The notes under the pieces: generated by a model
The model's input: the letters and a program-made list of their open reading frames with translations, nothing else
The model's database searches: none
Told to the model about the DNA's origin: nothing
NCBI RefSeq assembly: GCF_004421105.1
Contig: NZ_CP038033.1
Location: 2,189,659 to 2,253,658, forward strand
Length of the DNA: 64,000 nt
Source of the DNA: Nitrosococcus wardiae
Lineage (GTDB): Bacteria > Pseudomonadota > Gammaproteobacteria > Nitrosococcales > Nitrosococcaceae
Direction: 5' to 3'
Shown: positions 53,690-64,000 of the stretch, in pieces
Layout of the letters: every line of letters begins with the position of its first letter
How positions within the stretch are numbered: the first letter of the stretch is position 1
Made by a program: the position numbers and the translations under genes

Positions 53690-54102
53690 ATTTTATCGAT
53701 CGGGCGCACGCGGTGGGGTTAGGCGTCATCCTGGATGTGGTCTACAACCATTTGGGGCCTGAGGGGAATAACCTCAAGGCATTCTCTGCCGATTACTTCT
53801 CCCATCAATACCACAGCGAGTGGGGCGAGTCGTTAAACTTTGATGAAGAAAACGCCGCTCCGGTGAGAGCCTTCGTTCTGGCCAATGTCCGCTATTGGCT
53901 AGCGGAGTTTCACCTGGATGGTTTGCGCTTTGATGCCACGCAGCAACTTTTCGATGCCTCGCCCGAGCCTATCCTCTCGGCTGCCGCCCGGGAAGCCCGG
54001 GTGGCGGCGGGAGACCGCGGGATATTTCTCGTGGCGGAAAACGAACCGCTCCTTGACCTGAGCGCGCGGCTGACCCAAAGGCCACGGGTGCAGCACCGCT
54101 AG
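53690..54102 (+). pseudogene. treZ: Fragment of malto-oligosyltrehalose trehalohydrolase (treZ)
   Basis: Middle part of a GH13 enzyme that releases trehalose from maltooligosyltrehalose. It reads IDRAHAVGLGVILDVVYNHL, GPEGNNLKAFSADYFSHQY, EWGESLNFDEENAAPVRAFV, LANVRYWLAEFHLDGLRFDA (nucleophile Asp region). The protein then departs after FLVAENEPLLDLSARL and stops. Both the N-terminal CBM48 part and the C-terminal half are missing. Confidence 0.82.
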
Positions 54103-54121
54103 CCTGGATAATTCATGAGAT

Positions 54122-54148
54122 CACCACAAAGGCACTAAGAGCGCAAAG
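54122..54148. repeat. CACCAC-AAG-CAC type dispersed repeat, copy 1
   Basis: CACCACAAAGGCACTAAGAG followed by CGCAAAG. A related inverted copy (complement of CTTTGTGTCTTAGTGGT) is at 56868-56885; both are next to a GCCTG(G)A-ATT stretch. Confidence 0.45.
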
Positions 54149-54428
54149 CAATCAACGGACAATCACCAGCATTTACTTGCCCTGGAGCCGGCGCTTGAAT
54201 GGTATTTTACGCCTCAGTGGCCAATTAGCCTGAGCGTCCCTGTTGCCTATGAAGAAGGACGCGGAGTTGAACACGGTGATGTGGAAATCGAACTTTGGGA
54301 GGTGATAAGAGATTTTGATCTCAACAGACTGCCCCTATGTGCGTCATGTCGATACTGATTGCGGCGAGGATGGCAATGATGTTCCCGTTCCCGAGGAAAG
54401 TCAGGTGAGAGCAAATGAAGCAAGCACG

Positions 54429-54901
54429 ATGGCCACAGATTCGGTACTGGCAGCCGAAGAGGCCGGGCTACGATACGTTCACGATGATAAACCCGGTATC
54501 ACGCGTCATCACGCCGGCTGCGGCTTTAGTTATCGGGATGCTATAGGCCGTCTTATCCGCGATAAAGATCAGCTGCGGCGGATCAAGTCGCTGGCGGTCC
54601 CGCCGGCATGGACGGATGTCTGGATATGCCCTGACCCCCACGGCCACATCCAAGCTACAGGACGCGATGCTCGTGGGCGCAAACAGTACAGGTACCATCC
54701 CCGATGGCGGGAAGTGAGGTTTGCCGTAAGTGCTATGTTCATCCCGAGGTGGTCAATGCCTATCTGGAGGGGACACTGGCGGGAGAGCTTAAGGAAAGCG
54801 CAGAGGCAGACTTGCCGGTGGAATTTGGCCAATTGGACAAAGGGGAAGCGGTGGTGCTGGCGTTTCTTCAACGGCGCTTAAGTATGGAAGGGAATAGATA
54901 A
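54429..54901 (+). pseudogene. Eukaryotic/poxvirus-type DNA topoisomerase IB, core deleted
   Basis: N-terminal part is normal for bacterial TopIB: EAGLRYVHDDKPGITRHHAG, FSYRDAIGRLIRDKDQLRRI, KSLAVPPAWTDVWICPDPHG, QATGRDARGRKQYRYHPRWRE. Near 54715 it jumps frame directly to the extreme C-terminus, VCRKCYVHPEVVNAYLEGTL, which should hold the probable active-site tyrosine. About 160 residues of the catalytic core are missing, so it is inactive. Confidence 0.82.
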
Positions 54902-54978
54902 AGAGTGACGTAAAATCCTGCTTACCGGAAGTAAAAAGCGTGTTTCTTTGCTGATGGTTCACCCATTCAAAGCCTTGC

Positions 54979-55491
54979 TTATTGGCGGGCGACTGCGTTG
55001 GTCGGCTCGCCCTGTGCGAAGGTGCGAAGGTTTTCGACGGTCGTATCGAGGATCCGCTGCACGGCCTCTCGCGTGTTAAAAGCACTATGGGGCGTGACCA
55101 CTACGTTTCTCATATGCACGAGAACCTCATCTGCCAGCAAAGTCGATAAGTCATGATGCTGCTCATATACAGCACGAAGTAGCTCTGCTTCCTCGCGGAC
55201 TACGGGCTCGTTGGGTAATACGTCCAGACCGGCTGCGGCAATCTTGCCGTCGGCGAGGGCGTGAACAAGCGCTCGAACATCGACCACTTCCCCACGGGCG
55301 GTGTTGATGAGCACGGCCTGATCAATTTTTGAGTAGATGAAAATCGAGATGCCTTCAGCCTCGGCATACTGGCTCGCGTTCTTGGCCGTCAGCGGCTGGT
55401 CAGTAAACTTTAGATCGTGCTCCGCGGCGAGCGCCTCGAATGTGTCGCGTTCCCAGTCTTCTACCTCAAAGATGCAGAGTTTCATTGGCAT
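54979..55491 (-). pseudogene. D-2-hydroxyacid dehydrogenase with NAD-binding core deleted
   Basis: Starts as an LdhA/DdhA-type dehydrogenase (KLCIFEVEDWERDTFEALAA, LTAKNASQYAEAEGISIFIY). At about 55318-55332 it passes, in frame, to QAVLINTARGEVVDVRALVH, GLDVLPNEPVV and VVVTPHSAFNTREAVQRIL. The missing part is about 150 residues including the GxGxxG NAD site and catalytic Arg/Glu region. ATG 55491 or 55485 opens the frame. It cannot bind NAD normally. Confidence 0.82.
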
Positions 55492-55653
55492 GACTTCTTG
55501 CCCGTTCTTAGCCGACGGCTGTTCCCTAGGGCTTACCCCCCTCAAGAAGATTTGACTACCCAACCCCCTATTCCACACGGTATGGGAAGCAGCCCGTCCG
55601 GAAGTCTTCCCCGGTCCTTGGAAAAAGGATCCCGGACGGGCCTGCGTGACTGA

Positions 55654-56406: not shown

Positions 56407-56681
56407 GGTGCACCTCCTTCTTGATTGTGGTAAATAGAAAAAATCGATTTCAGAAATCATCGGGGATAGATCCTTCCCCCTTAGAAGATAATTTAAGATG
56501 TCTTTTGCAGCGATTACTATCAGGGTGATTCCCTAAAAGGCAAAATAAAATTTAACCCCCTCCGGGAAGGGCTTGAAAACACGCGGTAAAGGATGATGAG
56601 GGGCCAATGGGGATGGTCGAGGATGGATAAACCGCCTATGCTTAATTCTAAGTATCTCAGTAAAATTTTTGAAGTATTTCC

Positions 56682-56781
56682 GGAGCGAGCCGGTGGCGTG
56701 GAGCCGGGGGAGAGGGAAGTCCCCGCAAGCCCTTTTTTTAGGGAGGAAAAACGGGTTTGCGGAACACCACCAGCTCGCTCC
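56682..56781. repeat. 100-base element with terminal inverted repeats and an inner hairpin
   Basis: Outer arms GGAGCGAGCCGGTGG (56682-56696) and CCACCAGCTCGCTCC (56767-56781) match at 14 of 15 positions. Inside, CCGCAAGCCC (56723-56732) pairs with GGGTTTGCGG (56753-56762), with one G-U. The whole can fold as one long interrupted hairpin, as in small non-autonomous elements or structured RNAs. Confidence 0.7.
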
Positions 56782-56960
56782 TAAAACACCTCATATTTTA
56801 TGCATAGGTACTTATACGCAACTCCATCAATTTCTCCCAACTGACTGAGATTCTCTCATCTTCGTGTCCTTTGTGTCTTAGTGGTAAAAAATTCAGGCTA
56901 GGCTGATAGTCTATACCCATCAGCCTCTCAAACCCTCACTTAGCCTGACTAACTAGCAAC

Positions 56961-57004
56961 TTATGCTCTTGGATAAACCCATGTAGTTATCCAGAACTGA
57001 CGTT
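56961..57004. repeat. 44-base dispersed repeat, copy 2
   Basis: Same orientation as 33907-33950; starts TTATGCTCTTGGATAA, ends CAGAACTGACGTT, three differences. Lies about 165 bases upstream of the diheme cytochrome gene. Confidence 0.7.
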
Positions 57005-57169
57005 ATTTTAAGGGCGCTGCTTTCTTCAAGGCCCGAGAAAAAAGAGGGCTTGGTACGTGCAACAGCTATTCTCACAGACGGGGTTCCTATTATTTTCTAT
57101 ACTTGTCACTGGTTAATGGGGGAACAAAGAATAGCCCAGAGGATAAGAACAAAGAGGGGAGAAGCCGTA

Positions 57170-58573
57170 ATGAAGCGAATTGATTTTTTGGGATCCAATT
57201 CTGTAGGCACCTTCATTTGGATGCGAGGAGGAGGTCTCCTTATCACTCTTGTGATGTTGACTGCTTGTCCCGGCTCTCCTCCTCCTGATTTTCCTTCTCC
57301 TCCGTCACCTACCCCTGAGCAGAAACTTATAGTCAAGGGCCGGGATCTTTTTTTTAAAGAGACATTTAACGGCAATGGCCGAACTTGTAGTACCTGCCAC
57401 CGAGCAGAAGCGAACTTCACTATGGATCCCCCTCAGTTCATTGCCACCTTGCCGGACAAGGATCCCTTGTTTGTCGCCGAGTTTAACCCCGATCTGAATG
57501 AGAATTTTGAAAAGCCGGCCTTGATGCGCCAATTTGGGTTGGTTGTTGAAAATCTGGATGGTTTTGAAGATTTGGAAAATGTCTTCGTGCTGCGGGGTGT
57601 ACTTCCGACTCTGGCTTTGCGTACTTCGGTAGAAAGTCCTCAAGGCCCGCGCTTGGGTTGGTCGGGAGACGGTTCAGCGCGGGAGGGAACCCTAAAATTA
57701 TTTGCACTTGGCGCGGTCATCCAGCATTTTCCTAAGACTTTGGATAGAGATCCGGGCGTTGACTTTCGGTTACCTACGGAAGATGAACTCGTAGCCTTGG
57801 AAGCTTTTCAATTGGCTTTGGGCCGGCAGGAAGATCTGCAACTCCCTCTTCCTTTGAAGGGAGACAGGGCCAAGCAGGGACAAGAGGTATTTCTTGACGA
57901 CACCCTTGGAAAATGCAACATCTGTCATCGCAATGCCGGAGCGAATGCCCGCCTGGGAGGCCAAGATGCGGGGAATGCAAATTTCAATACCGGCGTTGAA
58001 AATCTACCTCACCCGGGGGGCAAGCAGATTCCCCCAGATGATGGTTTCGGCACGCCCGGGGATGGGACCTTCAACTCTATCCCTCTTGTCGAGGCAGCTG
58101 ATACAGCGCCCTTTTTCCATAACCATGCGATTGATACCTTGGAAGGGGCGGTGGCTTTTTATAACAGTGAAGCTTTCAATAATTCCCCCTCGGGTCAGAC
58201 ATTGGCAGGCTTAGATCCTAATGGCATTGGTATCCAATTAAATCCAGAACAGGTCGTTGCCGTCGCTGCTTTTCTCCGGGTTATAAATGCTCTGGAAAAT
58301 ATTCGGTGGAGTATAGAATTGATTGAAGGTGCGATGGGCAAGCGTTTCGCTCTCTTTGGTGATAAGGATGAACAGCTGAGGATAGCCAATTTTCAAATTT
58401 CAGATGCCATGAAAGTATTGGAAGAGGGCGATTTACATCCCCAAGCAAGAACGGCTTTAAGCACAGCCTTTACTTTCATTGAAAAAGTCAGAAAAAACGC
58501 TGCATTAATGCATCTTACGACCGAAGCAATTGCTCAGTTGAATAATGCGCGCAGCGATCTCATTCGATCCTAG
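57170..58573 (+). CDS. Diheme c-type cytochrome lipoprotein, cytochrome c peroxidase/MauG-like
   Basis: 467 residues from ATG 57170 (GAGGGGAGAAG upstream). Lipobox LVMLTAC (C33), then a Pro-rich linker. Heme sites CSTCH (C73-H77) and CNICH (C249-H253) lie in two related halves, with FNSIPLVEAADTAPFFHNHA near the second. Layout resembles CCP/MauG proteins, but it has a long C-terminal helical tail. Probably periplasmic or outer-membrane electron transfer or peroxidase; substrate unknown. Confidence 0.82.
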   Translation: MKRIDFLGSNSVGTFIWMRGGGLLITLVMLTACPGSPPPDFPSPPSPTPEQKLIVKGRDLFFKETFNGNGRTCSTCHRAEANFTMDPPQFIATLPDKDPLFVAEFNPDLNENFEKPALMRQFGLVVENLDGFEDLENVFVLRGVLPTLALRTSVESPQGPRLGWSGDGSAREGTLKLFALGAVIQHFPKTLDRDPGVDFRLPTEDELVALEAFQLALGRQEDLQLPLPLKGDRAKQGQEVFLDDTLGKCNICHRNAGANARLGGQDAGNANFNTGVENLPHPGGKQIPPDDGFGTPGDGTFNSIPLVEAADTAPFFHNHAIDTLEGAVAFYNSEAFNNSPSGQTLAGLDPNGIGIQLNPEQVVAVAAFLRVINALENIRWSIELIEGAMGKRFALFGDKDEQLRIANFQISDAMKVLEEGDLHPQARTALSTAFTFIEKVRKNAALMHLTTEAIAQLNNARSDLIRS

Positions 58574-58617
58574 TGATTCGCCAGTCTCTTCCCACCAGGA
58601 GTAACAATGGAGCAGCG

Positions 58618-59028
58618 ATGGTGATGTTTAAAAAGCAACCTGGTTTAGGAACGATCCTGTTTTTGATGCTTTTTATCTCAGGCGCCGATGGCGCTAATTC
58701 TGACAGGGGTGAAGAATTTATAGAAAGATATGAAAAGTTTATTCCTTTTGACTACTCTCCGGGGCTGGAGAGTAAGAAGGTGGCTATCGGCAATATTGTT
58801 GCTATCGATAGAGAGGCTAAGATGGTGACTATTCGCATAGATTCTGAAACTCATCGCTATAAAGTGATGGAAGACACCCCTATCTGGTTAGATCAGCCTC
58901 AGCGTAAGACGAGAAATTTAAAGGGCTCTCTGAGCGATCTTGAGGTTGGTTTGAGAGCCGAAATACAAACGGACCCGGGGGAGGATAAAGAGGTTGCTAA
59001 ATGGATCAAGGTCCAAATTAATGAATAG
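58618..59028 (+). CDS. Small exported protein of unknown function
   Basis: 136 residues from ATG 58618 (GGAG five bases upstream). Signal sequence LGTILFLMLFISGADGA; mature part has KKVAIGNIVAIDREAKMVTI, RIDSETHRYKV and an acidic C-terminus, a beta-barrel-like pattern. It starts 45 bases after the cytochrome gene and is probably co-transcribed. Function unknown. Confidence 0.65.
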   Translation: MVMFKKQPGLGTILFLMLFISGADGANSDRGEEFIERYEKFIPFDYSPGLESKKVAIGNIVAIDREAKMVTIRIDSETHRYKVMEDTPIWLDQPQRKTRNLKGSLSDLEVGLRAEIQTDPGEDKEVAKWIKVQINE

Positions 59029-59102
59029 CGGTCGAAAGGGAGGTAATCCTTCTCCCGTCCCTCCTATAACCCGACAGTTTTAATCATAGAATCCACTATG
59101 TT

Positions 59103-61130
59103 GTGCATTCACTTTTCCACAAAATGGAAAAGGTCCAATGTTCCGGTCGGGAGTACAGATCAGTGTTGAGATATACTGCGGGCGCCGGTATATTCATTCT
59201 ATCTTTCCTGATCGCCATTCCGCAGGGCCTTACGGAAGATGAGGTCACTGTGATCATTGAGCGAGTTGAACAGCTCGAGTGCGTCGATGAAACACTGTGG
59301 TGGTGCGGATCGGCGGGTGACTTTTATGCCAAAGTGACCCTCGACGGCACCTCCTTTCAGAGCAACTCCATTGGCGATGATGCGGATATCTCACCGAATT
59401 GGAGCTTCCGGCACACCGTTTCGTCGCGCCGTATTCCCATACGCCTTGAGATCTGGGATTCGGATGGTGGGCTGCGTTTTGGCGACGACCACGTGGATAT
59501 CACCTCGGGGAGTGGACGTAACCTTGATGTGAACTTGAACCTGGACAGCTGCGCGATCACAGGCGGCGTCTCGGGGACCTGCGGAGCGACGCTGGTATCG
59601 AGTGGCACTAGCGATGACCGGGCCCGTATTCATTTTCGCATCGAGGTAACTCCGGTACGGCTAGGGGAGGTGGAGGTCATCGGCGAGCGCTTAACGACCC
59701 TCGAGTGCGTGGATGATTTTCTTTGGTGGTGTGGCTCGGCTGCTGATTACTACGGGCGCATCGGCATAGATGGCATGGAGCAATCTAATGAAGGGCGCAA
59801 CGAGAGTACGCAGTTCGGCAATCAAGATGACGATGCGGCGTACTGGCGGTTCACCCGCTGGGTGAACCTCAATCGGGCAACGCTTCCGCTCAGCGTCCGA
59901 ATTATGGATTCCGACGGCTTTCTCAATCCGGATGACACAGTGGACATCCAGCCCGGAGCGGGGCGGGTATTGGAGCTGGACTTAAACCCCGCAAGCTGCG
60001 TGATCAGCGGCGAGGCCACCGGACGCTGTGGGGGCCTCCTGGACGTCAATTCGCGAATCGATGTCAGCGGTAATCAAAGCGACCGTGCACGTATGCAGCT
60101 ACGGATCCAAGTTTACGATTCACCTCGAGTTTACGTGCGCTGTCTACATTCGCCAATCTGGCCCCAGCCGGGCGACACGGTAACCTTCAGCGCCGAGGCC
60201 CTGGATGCGAATATGCGCCCCATTGTCGCCGATCGGATTGCGTTGCGCCAGCCAGCAACGGGGGCTGGGACAGTGCACACCTGTGAGAACGCCTCGACCT
60301 GTGAGGTCCATCTCAATGCAACGACGAGCGGTACCTTCAACTACAGCTGTTTAGCCGAGGAACGGGGTGTAGCCACCACTACGGGCAGCCGCGGCTCAAC
60401 CATTGGAACGCCAGCACGTGGCCGCGCGGTGGCCGTACTACAGCACCAGACCACCGATCGGGCAATGGACTTTGTGTTCATACCGGATAGCGATAACTAT
60501 GCGAGCGCCAATGATCTCAGTTTTCGCAATGACGTCTACGGTGTGATTTGGACTGCATTTTTGTCCGATGAGCTGTTCCTACGCAATCAAGACCGGTTCA
60601 ATTTCTGGATCGCGCAGGATAGGGGAGATGCTCACGGCTTTACCACCGGATCACCCTGTTATACGCCGCCAGCAAACTGGACCACGGACTACCCGTTTGC
60701 CGATAGTGGGGTGCTGCTCCATACGGATGATCTTCGGGACTGCGCCACGGGGGGAATATTCAGCAGCGAGCCCGGGTCGACTGAGACCGTGCGCCATGAA
60801 ACCGGGCACAGCCCCTTCGGGTTGGCCGATGAGTATTGCTGCGACGGGGGGTATTTTCAGACGAGCGTTAATCCCAACCTGTTTGGACCGGAACCTCCCG
60901 GCAGTACCGCGGCGCTAACCGCGTGCCAAGCCGATCCGTTAGCTGGGCTGCGCGATTCCTGTCTAGGATTTGTGTCTTCACGCATTAGCAGCGGGAATCA
61001 GTTTTTCCGTGTCGATCATGCCCCGGCCAGTAGAGAGGTAGAGGTGGAAAACGATCGGATGATAGATAATAAGGTACCGCGCGCCGCCGATGATCGCCGT
61101 ATTCAGGCCATCATCGATGCCCTGCCTTGA
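59103..61130 (+). CDS. Secreted M64-like zinc metallopeptidase with duplicated N-terminal module
   Basis: Up to 675 residues (GTG 59103; ATG 59124 also fits). Signal-type helix AGAGIFILSFLIAIPQG. Two homologous modules of about 130 residues begin LECVDETLWWCGSAGDFYAK and LECVDDFLWWCGSAADYYGR. A Cys-containing Ig-like segment follows (about 345-440), then the peptidase part with HETGHSPFGLADEY (H565, E566, H569, D576), matching the HExxH-x6-D site of M64 peptidases. Many paired cysteines support export. Substrate unknown. Confidence 0.78.
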   Translation: MHSLFHKMEKVQCSGREYRSVLRYTAGAGIFILSFLIAIPQGLTEDEVTVIIERVEQLECVDETLWWCGSAGDFYAKVTLDGTSFQSNSIGDDADISPNWSFRHTVSSRRIPIRLEIWDSDGGLRFGDDHVDITSGSGRNLDVNLNLDSCAITGGVSGTCGATLVSSGTSDDRARIHFRIEVTPVRLGEVEVIGERLTTLECVDDFLWWCGSAADYYGRIGIDGMEQSNEGRNESTQFGNQDDDAAYWRFTRWVNLNRATLPLSVRIMDSDGFLNPDDTVDIQPGAGRVLELDLNPASCVISGEATGRCGGLLDVNSRIDVSGNQSDRARMQLRIQVYDSPRVYVRCLHSPIWPQPGDTVTFSAEALDANMRPIVADRIALRQPATGAGTVHTCENASTCEVHLNATTSGTFNYSCLAEERGVATTTGSRGSTIGTPARGRAVAVLQHQTTDRAMDFVFIPDSDNYASANDLSFRNDVYGVIWTAFLSDELFLRNQDRFNFWIAQDRGDAHGFTTGSPCYTPPANWTTDYPFADSGVLLHTDDLRDCATGGIFSSEPGSTETVRHETGHSPFGLADEYCCDGGYFQTSVNPNLFGPEPPGSTAALTACQADPLAGLRDSCLGFVSSRISSGNQFFRVDHAPASREVEVENDRMIDNKVPRAADDRRIQAIIDALP

Positions 61131-61153
61131 GTAAGATGCTGGGTGAAAAAATC

Positions 61154-61750
61154 ATGAATAGCCTATCGCGGAAAGGCCTCTGGACTATGTTACTGCTGCT
61201 CGCAGGCTGCAATGAGGTCCCCAAAGGCGAGCAAAATCCTACGATGGCGCAACATCGAGAAGAGACGGCTGTTGTCCAACGCATTGATGGGGGCACACTG
61301 ACCACCGCGCCAGAAACTGCTGCGCTGCCGTCTCCGGCAAAGTTTACAAAGGTACTTGCCGTCGACATGCGCGTCGACAAGCACAATACTGTGGTATTAA
61401 AGAATCCCAGAATCTATTACGGTGCACCGCCCAACAGCCTCGGCAATCCCCCTATGTTCATGGCGCAATTATTAAATCCCCAAGGCACAGTGATCTTCAC
61501 CGCACTGCTCTGGGACCCGCGTTGGACATTTGTCTGGAGTGACGAAGAAAACAGAGATTTTGTAGATGTGGCGGAAGCGGCCGAAACGGTGGTCATCGTG
61601 CCGTTCAAACGCAATATGAGTACGATGCGCCTGGTCAGAAAGGAAGAACGTATGGCCTCGATAGACCTATCCCAGGCCATCGCGGCGTTCTGCGCCCAAC
61701 ATCGTGAAGACCCAGATTGCCATAGACCTGATCCGGAAAAACCACAATAA
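61154..61750 (+). CDS. Lipoprotein partner of the M64-like peptidase
   Basis: 198 residues from ATG 61154 (61136 also possible), starting within 25 bases of the peptidase stop. Clean lipobox LLLLAGC (C19). Mature part: VLAVDMRVDKHNTVVLKNPR, ALLWDPRWTFVWSDEENRDF and a C-terminal DLSQAIAAFCAQHREDPDCH. No family recognised. Proximity suggests an inhibitor, anchor or helper of the peptidase (inference). Confidence 0.7.
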   Translation: MNSLSRKGLWTMLLLLAGCNEVPKGEQNPTMAQHREETAVVQRIDGGTLTTAPETAALPSPAKFTKVLAVDMRVDKHNTVVLKNPRIYYGAPPNSLGNPPMFMAQLLNPQGTVIFTALLWDPRWTFVWSDEENRDFVDVAEAAETVVIVPFKRNMSTMRLVRKEERMASIDLSQAIAAFCAQHREDPDCHRPDPEKPQ

Positions 61751-61884
61751 TTCGCAAGTAGTGGATGCCACGGGCTACCTTTGAGATCAGGTGGACAGGC
61801 CCTGTGGGCCTGGATAACGCAGGCGCCATCTGCTGAAACAGGTCACGCAAACCGTATTAGAAGGTTGAAAGAGAACACGGACCA

Positions 61885-62898
61885 TTGACCGAACAGCAGT
61901 ATCAAGCTTACGAGCTCATCTTTTTCTCTTTGGCATTTGCCATTGTGGTTTTTTTCCATTTCTATTTCCGCGTGGAGGATTGGGATTGGTTACTGCTGTC
62001 CGGCATATTGACCGCGCTCCTTGGTCTCTGGTTAGTCAAGTTCATTCCCAGGAAAATAAATCACACGCTCACGCGTTTGTTCAATCGTAAAGTGATTTCA
62101 TTAGATTCTGCGCAGGAAGATCATTTAAGAAAAGAACTCAAGGAACGTGCTGCCATCTGGGCGACCGCCTCAGGAGGTCTAGTGGGTAGCGCTGTTTTGA
62201 TAAGCTTTATTATCAAAAATGGGTTGCCCTATCCTGCCGCCCAGATCCCCTTAACCCTCTTTGAAGCCATTGGGGGTTATATTGTCGGCCGCCATCTCGG
62301 AATCATGGCTTCTTACGGCCGACTCGGTCATTGGCTAAAAAGGCAGGGAATTCGGATCCAAATCAAGCCCGGTTACCCCGATGGAGCGGTAGGGCTTAAG
62401 CCCGTGGGCGATTTTTACTTCTTCCAAGCGATGCTCTTGGCCTTGCCTGTGCTGTATTTATTCCTTTGGTGGTTGATGATGCCCTTGTGGCCGAGATATG
62501 AGGCCTGGAGAAACATCTACCTTGGGCTATTACCCGTCGCGATCACTTTTGAAGTGATTGCTTTTTTGGTGCCTGTGTGGTTTTTCCACCGGGAGATGCA
62601 AAAGCAGAAGATGCAGCTTTTGAGGGAAGCGGATGTTCTGGGGCAGGAAATCAATGATGTGGAAACCACTTTAATCGAGTCTCAAGACCCTGCTCAACGT
62701 GAACTTCTTAAAGATCGGTTGTCCTTTATGACGAAACGCTATGGGGAAATCGAACATATGCCCACCTGGCCCGTCAATGCGAAAACCTGGCGTTACTTTT
62801 TTATCAATAACCTCACCTTAATTCTGCTTCCATTATTAAGTGAGTTCATCAAAATGCTGGTAAACCCACTCATTAAAATAATGAATAAACTCTTATAG
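61885..62898 (+). CDS. Integral membrane protein of unknown function
   Basis: 337 codons from TTG 61885; no better start is seen. About seven hydrophobic segments: FFSLAFAIVVFFHFYF, LLLSGILTALLGLWLVKFI, WATASGGLVGSAVLISFII, FFQAMLLALPVLYLFLWWLM, IYLGLLPVAITFEVIAFLV, and a C-terminal hydrophobic helix. A long charged coiled stretch (about 240-290) lies between the last two. No family recognised. Confidence 0.72.
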   Translation: MTEQQYQAYELIFFSLAFAIVVFFHFYFRVEDWDWLLLSGILTALLGLWLVKFIPRKINHTLTRLFNRKVISLDSAQEDHLRKELKERAAIWATASGGLVGSAVLISFIIKNGLPYPAAQIPLTLFEAIGGYIVGRHLGIMASYGRLGHWLKRQGIRIQIKPGYPDGAVGLKPVGDFYFFQAMLLALPVLYLFLWWLMMPLWPRYEAWRNIYLGLLPVAITFEVIAFLVPVWFFHREMQKQKMQLLREADVLGQEINDVETTLIESQDPAQRELLKDRLSFMTKRYGEIEHMPTWPVNAKTWRYFFINNLTLILLPLLSEFIKMLVNPLIKIMNKLL

Positions 62899-63278
62899 GC
62901 CTTGGAACAAAACTCATTTGGATCAGACTCCTCTTTCTAGGCGAAACTCCACAAAAGCCCGGAGGGGGGTCACGGCTAAGCCATAAAATTGACCTTTACA
63001 CCACACGCTATAATGGGAGAATAGCGCAACGGCCTAGGGCTCAAAAAGCCCATCCGCGAATATCCAGGCGGCACAAAGAAACCGTCTATGTTCTATATGC
63101 CAGAGCTTCCAGATAAGGTGGACAATCCACAAGGGGCAATGTCTTTAGCGAGAAGGGGGTAGCGCCGCTTTATAATTAACCGCTTTAACACTGAGGGTTG
63201 ACCGCGGTGCTGATGAATGGACCTTTTTCTATCTTTGTCACAGCGCCGCCGTATGCCTTCCTCTAAAGAGACGTATTG
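62899..63278. other. Intergenic region before trkH
   Basis: About 380 bases, nothing recognised except AT-rich stretches; the trkH promoter is presumably here. Confidence 0.4.
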
Positions 63279-64000
63279 ATGCTCCATTTAGTTGTGGTGA
63301 TCCGCACCCTGGGCGTTCTTCTGCTCGTCTATAGCGTGGCGATTATCCCGCCTTTGCTCATCTCGGTGGGATATCAAGACGGTGAATGGCCCTATTGGCT
63401 GATAATCTGGATGGAGGCTTTGTTACTCGGGTGGGTGATGTGGTGGCCCCTGCGCCGTAGAGAACTCGATCTTCACCGAAGGGATGGCTTTACTATAGTG
63501 ACCCTTTTTTGGTTTATCTTGGGCTTCATCAGCGCGGTGCCTTTTCTTTTTATGCCCCAACTCGATTTTTCCGATGCCGTGTTTGAGGCCATCTCCGCCT
63601 TCACGACGACGGGTGCAACGGTGATAGTGGGCTTGGACCAGTTACCTCCTTCGATTCTATTTTGGCGCCAGGAACTGCAATGGCTAGGCGGCATCGGGGT
63701 CATTGTCACCGCCGTGGCTATTTTGCCCATGCTCGGTATTGGTGGGATGCAGTTATATCGGGCGGAAACTCCGGGACCCATTAAAGGAGAAAAACTGACC
63801 CCCCGTATTGCCCAAACCGCCCGGGCCTTGTGGTTTATTTATGGGGGGCTGACGATAACTTGTGCCACAGCTTATTGGCTCGCGGGTATGTCCTGGTTTG
63901 ATGCCGTGGCTCATAGCCTGACCACCGTCTCTACCGGTGGATTTTCCACCCATGATGACAGCCTAGCGTATTTTGACAGTGCCTTGATCGAAGCTATTGC
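63279..64000 (+). CDS. trkH: TrkH/TrkI-type potassium uptake protein (partial, runs off right edge)
   Basis: The frame from ATG 63279 is open to the window end (240 codons). It shows paired helices and the K+-selectivity loops of the family: AISAFTTTGATVIVGLDQLP, FWRQELQWLGGIGVIVTAVA, ILPMLGIGGMQLYRAETPGP, HSLTTVSTGGFSTHDDSLAY. Inner-membrane K+ uptake, needing TrkA and usually a Na+ or H+ gradient. Fits the salt-adaptation theme. Confidence 0.92.
   Translation, partial: MLHLVVVIRTLGVLLLVYSVAIIPPLLISVGYQDGEWPYWLIIWMEALLLGWVMWWPLRRRELDLHRRDGFTIVTLFWFILGFISAVPFLFMPQLDFSDAVFEAISAFTTTGATVIVGLDQLPPSILFWRQELQWLGGIGVIVTAVAILPMLGIGGMQLYRAETPGPIKGEKLTPRIAQTARALWFIYGGLTITCATAYWLAGMSWFDAVAHSLTTVSTGGFSTHDDSLAYFDSALIEAI

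What the first reader, a model, noticed from the sequence alone, without database searches (positions are those of the whole stretch)
59103..61750. Secreted M64-like peptidase with duplicated WWCGS module and partner lipoprotein
The two N-terminal modules share LECVD-x2-LWWCGSA-x-D-(F/Y)Y and similar ends, an obvious internal duplication I do not recognise as a named domain. With a HExxH-x6-D catalytic part and a downstream lipoprotein this could be a new surface proteolysis or inhibitor system.
Basis: partly seen in the sequence, partly recalled or inferred. Interest (0 to 1): 0.66.

Follow-up and report, generated by a model that had tools for sequence, protein, structure and literature searches.

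The report
Metalloprotease with a separate gate lipoprotein
A bacterium encodes a secreted, M64-like zinc protease whose gate domain, part of the same protein in the well-studied relatives, appears to have become a separate membrane-anchored lipoprotein next door, which suggests a two-piece protease whose access could be controlled.

Summary
ORF 59103-61130 (675 aa) has two tandem modules (43% identity, E 2e-35), a linker, and a divergent M64 (igalysin) metallopeptidase domain (profile-profile E 5.6e-10, but below Pfam's cut-off). A lipoprotein gene follows (61154-61750, lipobox LLAGC). The modules are rare, weakly C2-like, and also occur alone and on a reprolysin-like peptidase. The lipoprotein is the interesting part. 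The one near-full-length relative found (Thermoanaerobaculia, L002) keeps the pair. A three-row profile of the lipoprotein domain finds three new places in 347 Acidobacteriota genomes, all three fused or adjacent to an M64 peptidase. Its predicted structure (pLDDT 79) best matches the N-terminal beta-sandwich of two solved Bacteroides M64 enzymes (three PDB entries, Z 8.0-8.2; next entry 6.0; Foldseek alone not significant). In one of them, BF3526, that domain is reported to restrict substrate access. Best reading: a two-gene M64 peptidase with a detached gate domain, here lipid-anchored. Binding and gating are inferred. The peptidase also lacks the three cysteines of the M64 structural zinc site. 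New variant of a known kind.

The parts
59103..61130 (+). secreted M64-like metallopeptidase, 675 aa (alternative ATG start at 59124)
59103..59234 (+). N-terminal hydrophobic export signal (aa 1-44)
   Evidence: sequence inspection
59235..59651 (+). module 1 (aa 45-183), C2-like, Cys 60, 68, 150, 160
59661..60119 (+). module 2 (aa 187-339), C2-like, Cys 202, 210, 299, 309
60132..60398 (+). linker region (about aa 344-432), conserved in L002 (RCLHxPIWPQPGDTVT); no family found; Ig-like is only a guess
60399..61127 (+). divergent M64 catalytic domain (about aa 433-675)
60795..60836 (+). zinc motif HETGHSPFGLADEY (H565, E566, H569, D576; E577, Y578)
   Evidence: residue roles from BF3526 in PMC12402451 passages
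61059..61061 (+). Met-turn methionine M653 (ND-R-M in place of the usual C-x-M)
61154..61750 (+). partner lipoprotein, 198 aa, lipobox LLAGC (Cys19)
61346..61693 (+). beta-sandwich domain of the lipoprotein that matches the N-terminal domain of solved M64 peptidases (model residues 6-121)
61691..61720 (+). C-terminal cysteine pair (Cys180, Cys189), also present in the L002 partner

Best explanation
The two genes encode one enzyme in two pieces. The first is an exported zinc metallopeptidase of the M64 (igalysin) type carrying two C2-like modules. The second is a lipoprotein whose folded part is the M64 N-terminal beta-sandwich, which flanks the active site in the solved Bacteroides enzyme. Most likely the lipoprotein docks on the catalytic domain in trans. 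There it would (a) help it fold and (b) act as a gate that limits access to short or flexible substrate ends. Its lipid anchor would hold the complex at a membrane, while the C2-like modules bind calcium, a surface or a substrate. Shown: architecture, pairing, recurrence of the pairing, a moderate fold match, conserved catalytic residues. Inferred: physical complex, gating, location, metal binding, substrate.
For: Catalytic domain: hhalign against 31 M64 rows gives probability 96.6%, E 5.6e-10 over 141 aligned columns (row count). HExxH, Asp ligand and Met-turn Met agree in 10 of 10 aligned rows. Partner: kept next to the peptidase in L002 (23% identity, E 1e-8). A three-row profile finds 5 of 347 Acidobacteriota genomes; two were in the profile, and of the three new ones 3 of 3 lie on or beside an M64 peptidase: separate upstream gene in L056, fused C-terminal in L057, fused N-terminal in L058 (M64 confirmed by Pfam for the same places as L070, L073, L074). 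From the other direction, the six-row profile run over 1278 ORFs of 46 M64 loci has one non-training hit at E<1: the gene directly upstream of the M64 in L064, E 1.8e-4. AlphaFold2 model of the partner: pLDDT 79, nine strands. VIA-align top three entries are 9qdi and 4df9 (both BF3526) and 3p1v (BACOVA_00663), Z 8.2/8.2/8.0, 104-105 of 139 residues on chain residues 28-151; next entry Z 6.0. PMC12402451 (passages read) defines BF3526 residues 21-145 as that domain and reports that its E97 contacts substrate, that the catalytic domain alone failed to express, and that after chymotrypsin separated the parts the fragments cut intact IgA. Ordinary M64: Pfam M64_N fused in 30 of 30 high-scoring loci. 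By eye, partner and peptidase share compartment in 5 of 5 two-gene cases: both exported in the window, L002, L064 and L070; neither in L071.
Against: Foldseek alone gave no significant match to the partner model (best E 0.11), and M64 chains are not among the 50 rows shown. Z about 8 is near the typical best for models without a clear match (note), and only one of five AlphaFold models was good (mean pLDDT 79.0, then 59.7, 56.3, 48.5, 40.3). Sequence profile comparison with M64_N is weak: E 0.7 with two rows and 0.095 with three (probability under 1%), E 8.4e-4, probability 24% with six, E 4.5e-3, probability 7.7% with seven; no Pfam M64_N hit and no PDB sequence hit. The peptidase is below the Pfam M64 cut-off (11.9 against 26 bits) and lacks the three structural-zinc cysteines. 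Four of the 11 low-scoring M64 loci taken from the M64 search (L059, L060, L061, L063) show neither M64_N nor the partner domain at E<1e-3, and L072 likewise, so a gate domain recognisable by these profiles is not universal. The catalytic model failed (pLDDT 37), so no interface could be examined.
Confidence: 0.6

Rival explanations
1. The lipoprotein is a dedicated inhibitor or immunity protein that shields the producing cell from its own secreted peptidase. It need not be the former gate domain.
For: Adjacent gene and lipid anchor in the producer; the only other close family member found keeps a partner. A gate beside the active site would look like an inhibitor.
Against: The same domain is fused to M64 catalytic domains in L057 and L058, as a built-in domain rather than a self-protection protein, and the best fold matches are to the M64 N-terminal domain. 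In L002 the partner has no lipobox by eye (sequence) and carries a CARDB domain.
Confidence: 0.15
2. The lipoprotein is an independent beta-sandwich adhesin or substrate-binding protein that travels with M64 genes because both serve the same substrate. No complex is formed.
For: Beta-sandwiches are common; other sandwiches score Z 5-6; Foldseek found nothing significant; sequence support for M64_N homology is weak.
Against: Fusion on either side of the catalytic domain (L057, L058) and three further adjacent-gene cases (L056/L070, L006/L071, L064) with shared compartment; the three PDB entries of M64 enzymes with this domain rank first.
Confidence: 0.15
3. The locus is a horizontally acquired secreted degradative enzyme of no special design; the gene split and lost cysteines reflect decay.
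For: Peptidase present in 1 of 6 family genomes; the two genus members that share the upstream cytochrome pair carry different genes after it; higher GC than its two upstream neighbours (57% against 44-49%), though not higher than all other window genes measured (46-64%).
Against: Both frames are intact with signal and lipobox; catalytic residues are kept; L002, taken to be in another phylum, shares both the split and the cysteine loss, and L064 shows both too.
Confidence: 0.1

Closest known systems
BF3526 (4df9, 9qdi) and BACOVA_00663 (3p1v), two-domain M64 peptidases of Bacteroides
   Same: HExxH-x6-DE-Y motif spacing, Met-turn Met, N-terminal-type beta-sandwich associated with the catalytic domain
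   Different: There the beta-sandwich is fused and the structural zinc has three Cys; here it is a separate lipoprotein, the Cys are gone, and two C2-like modules plus a linker are added
ThomasA / IgAse of Thomasclavelia ramosa (M64 IgA protease; 9qdh)
   Same: M64 catalytic type, multidomain and secreted (passages)
   Different: A different N-terminal domain (DUF6273 in PMC12402451) and further domains; nothing here points to an antibody substrate
L056/L070, L006/L071 and L064 (Acidobacteriota M64 with a separate upstream partner gene)
   Same: Two-gene arrangement, partner-type domain beside an M64 peptidase; L064 also lacks the structural-zinc Cys
   Different: Partner gene lies upstream, no C2-like module, structural-zinc Cys present in L006/L071 and L070
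C2 domain (PF00168)
   Same: P-x-W ... D-x-D ... DD pattern; E 0.003 for the stand-alone module L003
   Different: Below Pfam's cut-off; four Cys per module in the window and L002; fold not confirmed

Membership tests
Peptidase M64 (igalysin, PF09471) | zinc motif HExxHxxxGxxD with Asp as third ligand | tested here: met
   H565, H569, G573, D576; aligned; motif as described in PMC12237041 passages
Peptidase M64 (igalysin, PF09471) | Met-turn methionine below the zinc | tested here: met
   M653 aligns with Met in 10 of 10 rows, the column invariant in 30 ordinary M64; by alignment only
Peptidase M64 (igalysin, PF09471) | score over the curated Pfam cut-off | tested here: not met
   11.9 against 26 bits; L002 gives no hit at E<=1. 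Homology is instead supported by hhalign, E 5.6e-10. Hence 'M64-like outlier', not a filed member
Peptidase M64 (igalysin, PF09471) | structural zinc site of Glu plus three Cys (seen in the solved enzymes; whether it defines the family is not stated) | tested here: not met
   Glu kept (E577); the three Cys columns, invariant in 30 of 30 ordinary M64, are replaced in the window and L002
Peptidase M64 (igalysin, PF09471) | metzincin fold of the catalytic domain | tested here: inconclusive
   AlphaFold2 with three rows failed, pLDDT 36.6
Peptidase M64 (igalysin, PF09471) | zinc binding and proteolytic activity | not testable with these tools
   needs protein
M64_N domain (PF16217), for the lipoprotein | fold of the M64 N-terminal beta-sandwich | tested here: inconclusive
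   Best three VIA entries are M64 enzymes, Z 8.0-8.2, next entry 6.0; Foldseek not significant
M64_N domain (PF16217), for the lipoprotein | sequence match to PF16217 | tested here: not met
   No Pfam hit at E<=1; hhalign with an M64_N alignment at best E 8.4e-4, probability 24%
M64_N domain (PF16217), for the lipoprotein | partners an M64 catalytic domain, fused or adjacent | tested here: met
C2 domain (PF00168), for the modules | Pfam match over cut-off | tested here: not met
   1 of 5 modules matches at E<=1, E 0.0017; L003 full length 18.2 against 22 bits
C2 domain (PF00168), for the modules | C2 fold and calcium loops | tested here: inconclusive
   D-x-D...DD invariant in five modules; module part of the model mostly below pLDDT 70

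The most novel reading that the evidence does not exclude
M64 peptidases have repeatedly had their active-site gate as a separate gene product, giving two-component proteases whose substrate range is set by association with a detachable gate. In this bacterium the gate is a lipoprotein, so the enzyme is restricted while held at a membrane and becomes a broad endopeptidase once released, with C2-like modules steering it.
Probability: 0.35. Interest if true: 0.65.

Novelty: new variant of a known kind. Interest (0 to 1): 0.5.

Why it matters
The published work on BF3526 argues that its N-terminal domain restricts what that M64 enzyme can cut, but the catalytic domain could not be expressed without it (PMC12402451, passages). 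Natural systems in which the two parts are separate genes allow the gate to be added or left out, so the gating idea becomes directly testable. It also offers an explanation for an otherwise anonymous lipoprotein and a rule for finding more such partners.

Tried and rejected
New domain of unknown fold for the modules: set aside in favour of C2-like, because the profile's two best PDB sequence hits are C2 proteins (E 0.046 and 0.076; third hit CD22 at 0.44) and L003 hits Pfam C2 below cut-off. The support is weak.

Module plus peptidase plus lipoprotein as an obligatory triplet: rejected. Module copy number varies, the module occurs without this peptidase (L003, L007), and the module profile has no hit at E<=1 in 1278 ORFs of 46 M64 loci, which include all the other partner-domain cases.

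Phage or plasmid origin: no relative of the linker-plus-catalytic part in viral contigs and no module in phage records. In plasmid records only the Nonomuraea module hit was found, and nothing with L003 or L002 as query.

Wider distribution: a match in 2 of 398 genomes of the own phylum, the own genome and G369 with the module only; 1 of 6 family genomes, the own; 1 of 7 genomes of the L002 family, the L002 genome itself. Linker-plus-catalytic profile in Acidobacteriota: 3 of 396 genomes, one of them the L002 genome and two only local matches to Pfam-recognised M64. Module profile 1 of 329 and 1 of 199 genomes, both already known; G369 is not reported there although L003 is in the profile, so its genome was presumably not in the smaller sample. 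Partner profile in the own phylum: 1 of 229, the own genome. These are thinned samples, and many genomes had more candidates than were scored.

Structure of the peptidase: failed (pLDDT 36.6), so no fold search was made with it. PDB sequence search with the partner profile: nothing at E<=1. Operon evidence: no terminator-like site between the two genes, but the scan found fewer such sites than shuffles give (2 against a mean of 4.8), so it says little.

Literature on a split M64 or a free-standing M64_N: four searches listed nothing describing one. Only the best rows were seen (15 of 259, 8 of 8, 7 of 7, 8 of 794), and most subscription journals are not held. Papers: passages only of PMC12402451 and PMC12237041; all others, including the Nitrosococcus papers, only in listings.

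Rows dropped before counts: L024 is missing from the 29-row M64_N set and the 31-row catalytic set because a search pattern missed it, and L064 is missing from the catalytic alignment for the same reason (its motif and lost Cys were read). L070 to L074 in the 16-row set were chosen because earlier searches had hit them, so the 16 are not a random sample; L059 to L069 (11) were taken from low scorers of the M64 search of 80 genomes.

Full report
What is there. ORF 59103-61130 (+) encodes a 675-residue exported protein and ORF 61154-61750 (+) a 198-residue lipoprotein that starts 23 bases after the peptidase stop. The first-stage description is accurate. The two modules share LECVDxxLWWCGSAxD(F/Y)Y, align at 42.7% identity with E 2.2e-35, and score 277 against a maximum of 55 in 1000 shuffles. 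The DNA repeat is 79% over 47 nt, so the duplication is not recent.

The peptidase. Pfam sees only a sub-threshold M64 match (E 0.12, 11.9 bits against 26) and NCBIfam a sub-threshold M6 match. A two-row profile (window and L002) compared with 31 M64 rows from Acidobacteriota gives probability 96.6% and E 5.6e-10 over 141 columns; against two divergent M64 rows alone, E 1.1e-9 over the 45 columns around the zinc motif. In an alignment of ten catalytic domains the HExxH motif, the third ligand Asp and the Met-turn Met agree in 10 of 10 rows. The residues that PMC12402451 assigns in BF3526 (H311, H315, D322, E323, Y324; passages) correspond by spacing to H565, H569, D576, E577 and Y578. In contrast, the three Cys columns of the second, structural zinc site, invariant in 30 of 30 ordinary M64, are replaced in both the window and L002; D651 and D663 stand at or near two of them. 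Both proteins instead share a Cys pair after the motif (DEYCCD); the divergent M64 L005 has DEYICCD. L064, another two-gene case, also lacks these cysteines, while L070 and L071 keep them. The window and L002 form a divergent branch.

Relatives. One pattern scan of 84,980 species genomes found one relative: L002, a Thermoanaerobaculia MAG (placed in Acidobacteriota by recall), residues 44-672, 35% identity in the best segment. It has one module, the same linker and the same peptidase; linker plus peptidase is 44% identical. The next gene encodes a secreted protein whose first half matches the window lipoprotein (23% identity, E 1e-8) and whose second half is a CARDB domain. The L002 partner has no lipobox by eye, so lipid anchoring is not conserved. 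Both partners have a Cys pair near the end of the shared part.

The modules. They are rare in the samples searched. They occur alone as a secreted 167-residue protein (L003) and in front of a different, reprolysin-like metallopeptidase with DUF11 repeats in Nonomuraea (L007). L003 matches Pfam C2 below cut-off (E 0.003). The five-row profile's best two PDB sequence hits are C2 proteins at E 0.046 and 0.076, and a perforin C2 domain was the best single-sequence hit at E 0.3. D-x-D and DD are invariant in the five. C2-like is the best label but is not proven.

The partner. A profile of the partner domain from the window, L002 and L006 hit 5 of 347 Acidobacteriota genomes at E<=0.01. Two were training members. 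All three new hits, with weak E-values of 9e-4, 1.7e-3 and 8.5e-3, fall on or beside an M64 peptidase: a separate gene directly upstream (L056), the C-terminus of an M64 protein (L057) and the N-terminus of an M64 protein (L058). Pfam finds M64 in 16 of 16 divergent loci examined, which include these. For genomes of 3-4 Mb with a few M64 genes, three such neighbourhoods by chance are very unlikely (inference). From the peptidase side, the six-row partner profile run over 1278 ORFs of 46 M64 loci gave one new hit below E 1: the gene directly upstream of the M64 in L064 (E 1.8e-4).

The fold. AlphaFold2 on the partner domain gave one good model (pLDDT 79; the other four 40-60). Foldseek found nothing significant (best E 0.11). 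VIA-align, applied to Foldseek's top 1000 chains, ranks the three entries of two-domain M64 enzymes first: 9qdi and 4df9 (both BF3526, Z 8.2) and 3p1v (BACOVA_00663, Z 8.0), covering 104-105 of 139 residues and landing on chain residues 28-151. The next entry has Z 6.0. PMC12402451 defines BF3526 residues 21-145 as the N-terminal beta-sandwich. Z near 8 alone would be weak, but the same family was already implicated by gene neighbourhood, an independent line. Sequence profiles support it only modestly: E 0.7 and 0.095 with two and three rows, 8.4e-4 with six (probability 24%), 4.5e-3 with seven; two unrelated comparisons gave 0.16 and 0.26.

Mechanism. In BF3526 the domain flanks the catalytic zinc, and its E97 binds the substrate. 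The authors could not express the catalytic domain without it, and after chymotrypsin separated the parts the preparation cut intact IgA, which they read as the domain being a barrier (PMC12402451 passages). Ordinary M64 proteins in Acidobacteriota carry this domain fused: 30 of 30 high scorers and 6 of 16 divergent ones (L062 and L065-L069). Of the other ten divergent ones, five have the partner-type domain fused or adjacent (L064, L070, L071, L073, L074), though four of these five were picked through earlier partner or catalytic-profile hits; five (L059, L060, L061, L063, L072) show neither. The window and L002 are the downstream-gene version. I therefore propose that the lipoprotein docks in trans as folding aid and gate, held at a membrane by its lipid. 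Docking, gating, membrane, calcium and substrate are inferred.

Context. The upstream cytochrome and small protein are conserved side by side in two of three other genus genomes and are followed there by different genes. The peptidase is absent from all five other family genomes searched. A DNA search with 56500-64000 showed no match to the lipoprotein stretch in the other three genus genomes, with 40 of 59 candidates scored in one of them. The peptidase gene is richer in GC (57%) than its two upstream neighbours (44-49%), but other genes of the window span 46-64%, so GC is no proof. Gain by transfer is likely from the patchy distribution; the source is not identified. The genome layout (4.02 Mb, one contig, four species in the genus, small genomes in sister genera) reminds me of Nitrosococcus, an ammonia oxidiser, and 'Pseudomonadota' for the own phylum rests on the same recall; neither was tested.

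Verdict. A real, recurring two-gene pairing and a divergent, split version of a known peptidase design. New variant of a known kind, interest 0.5.

Noticed in passing
window about 56646-56817 and 56818-57011: Interspersed repeats just upstream of the cytochrome gene: a ~166-bp element with dozens of full or partial copies in the own genome and in G399 (mostly 77-96% identity), and a second ~80-110-bp unit.
   Followed up: no
window 57050-59028: Di-haem MauG/MbnH-like cytochrome (TIGR04039 E 2.4e-7, below cut-off) with a small exported protein (51-53% identical in relatives), conserved as a pair in genus members G399 and G400.
   Followed up: partly
L007 4037-6829: Nonomuraea protein with the same module in front of a reprolysin-like metallopeptidase and DUF11 repeats; no gene is listed there in the PLSDB table.
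   Followed up: partly
L003 1540-2043 (-): Stand-alone secreted copy of the module in a genome of the same phylum (G369), with a sub-threshold Pfam C2 match.
   Followed up: partly
L071 3525-5287 (-): M64 peptidase and partner-type gene that both lack an export signal by eye; the partner has a long lysine/alanine-rich, histone-like N-terminal tail.
   Followed up: no
L070 1572-4286 (-): M64 peptidase followed in the same protein by what looks like a VWA domain (one of the 16 divergent M64 proteins matches VWA), with a separate partner gene upstream.
   Followed up: no
window 61885-62898: 337-aa membrane protein after the lipoprotein with no Pfam family above cut-off and no DNA match listed in the three other genus genomes.
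   Followed up: no
window 53713-55578: Apparent gene remnants: pieces that look like a trehalohydrolase/amylase, a type IB topoisomerase and a lactate-dehydrogenase-like protein (names by eye, recalled).
   Followed up: no
window 63276-63998; G000:C1:362364-363078; G000:C1:943775-944199: Several TrkH-like potassium transporter genes in the genome: matches of 85% over 715 bases and 70% over 425 bases to the gene at the window's end (name by eye).
   Followed up: no
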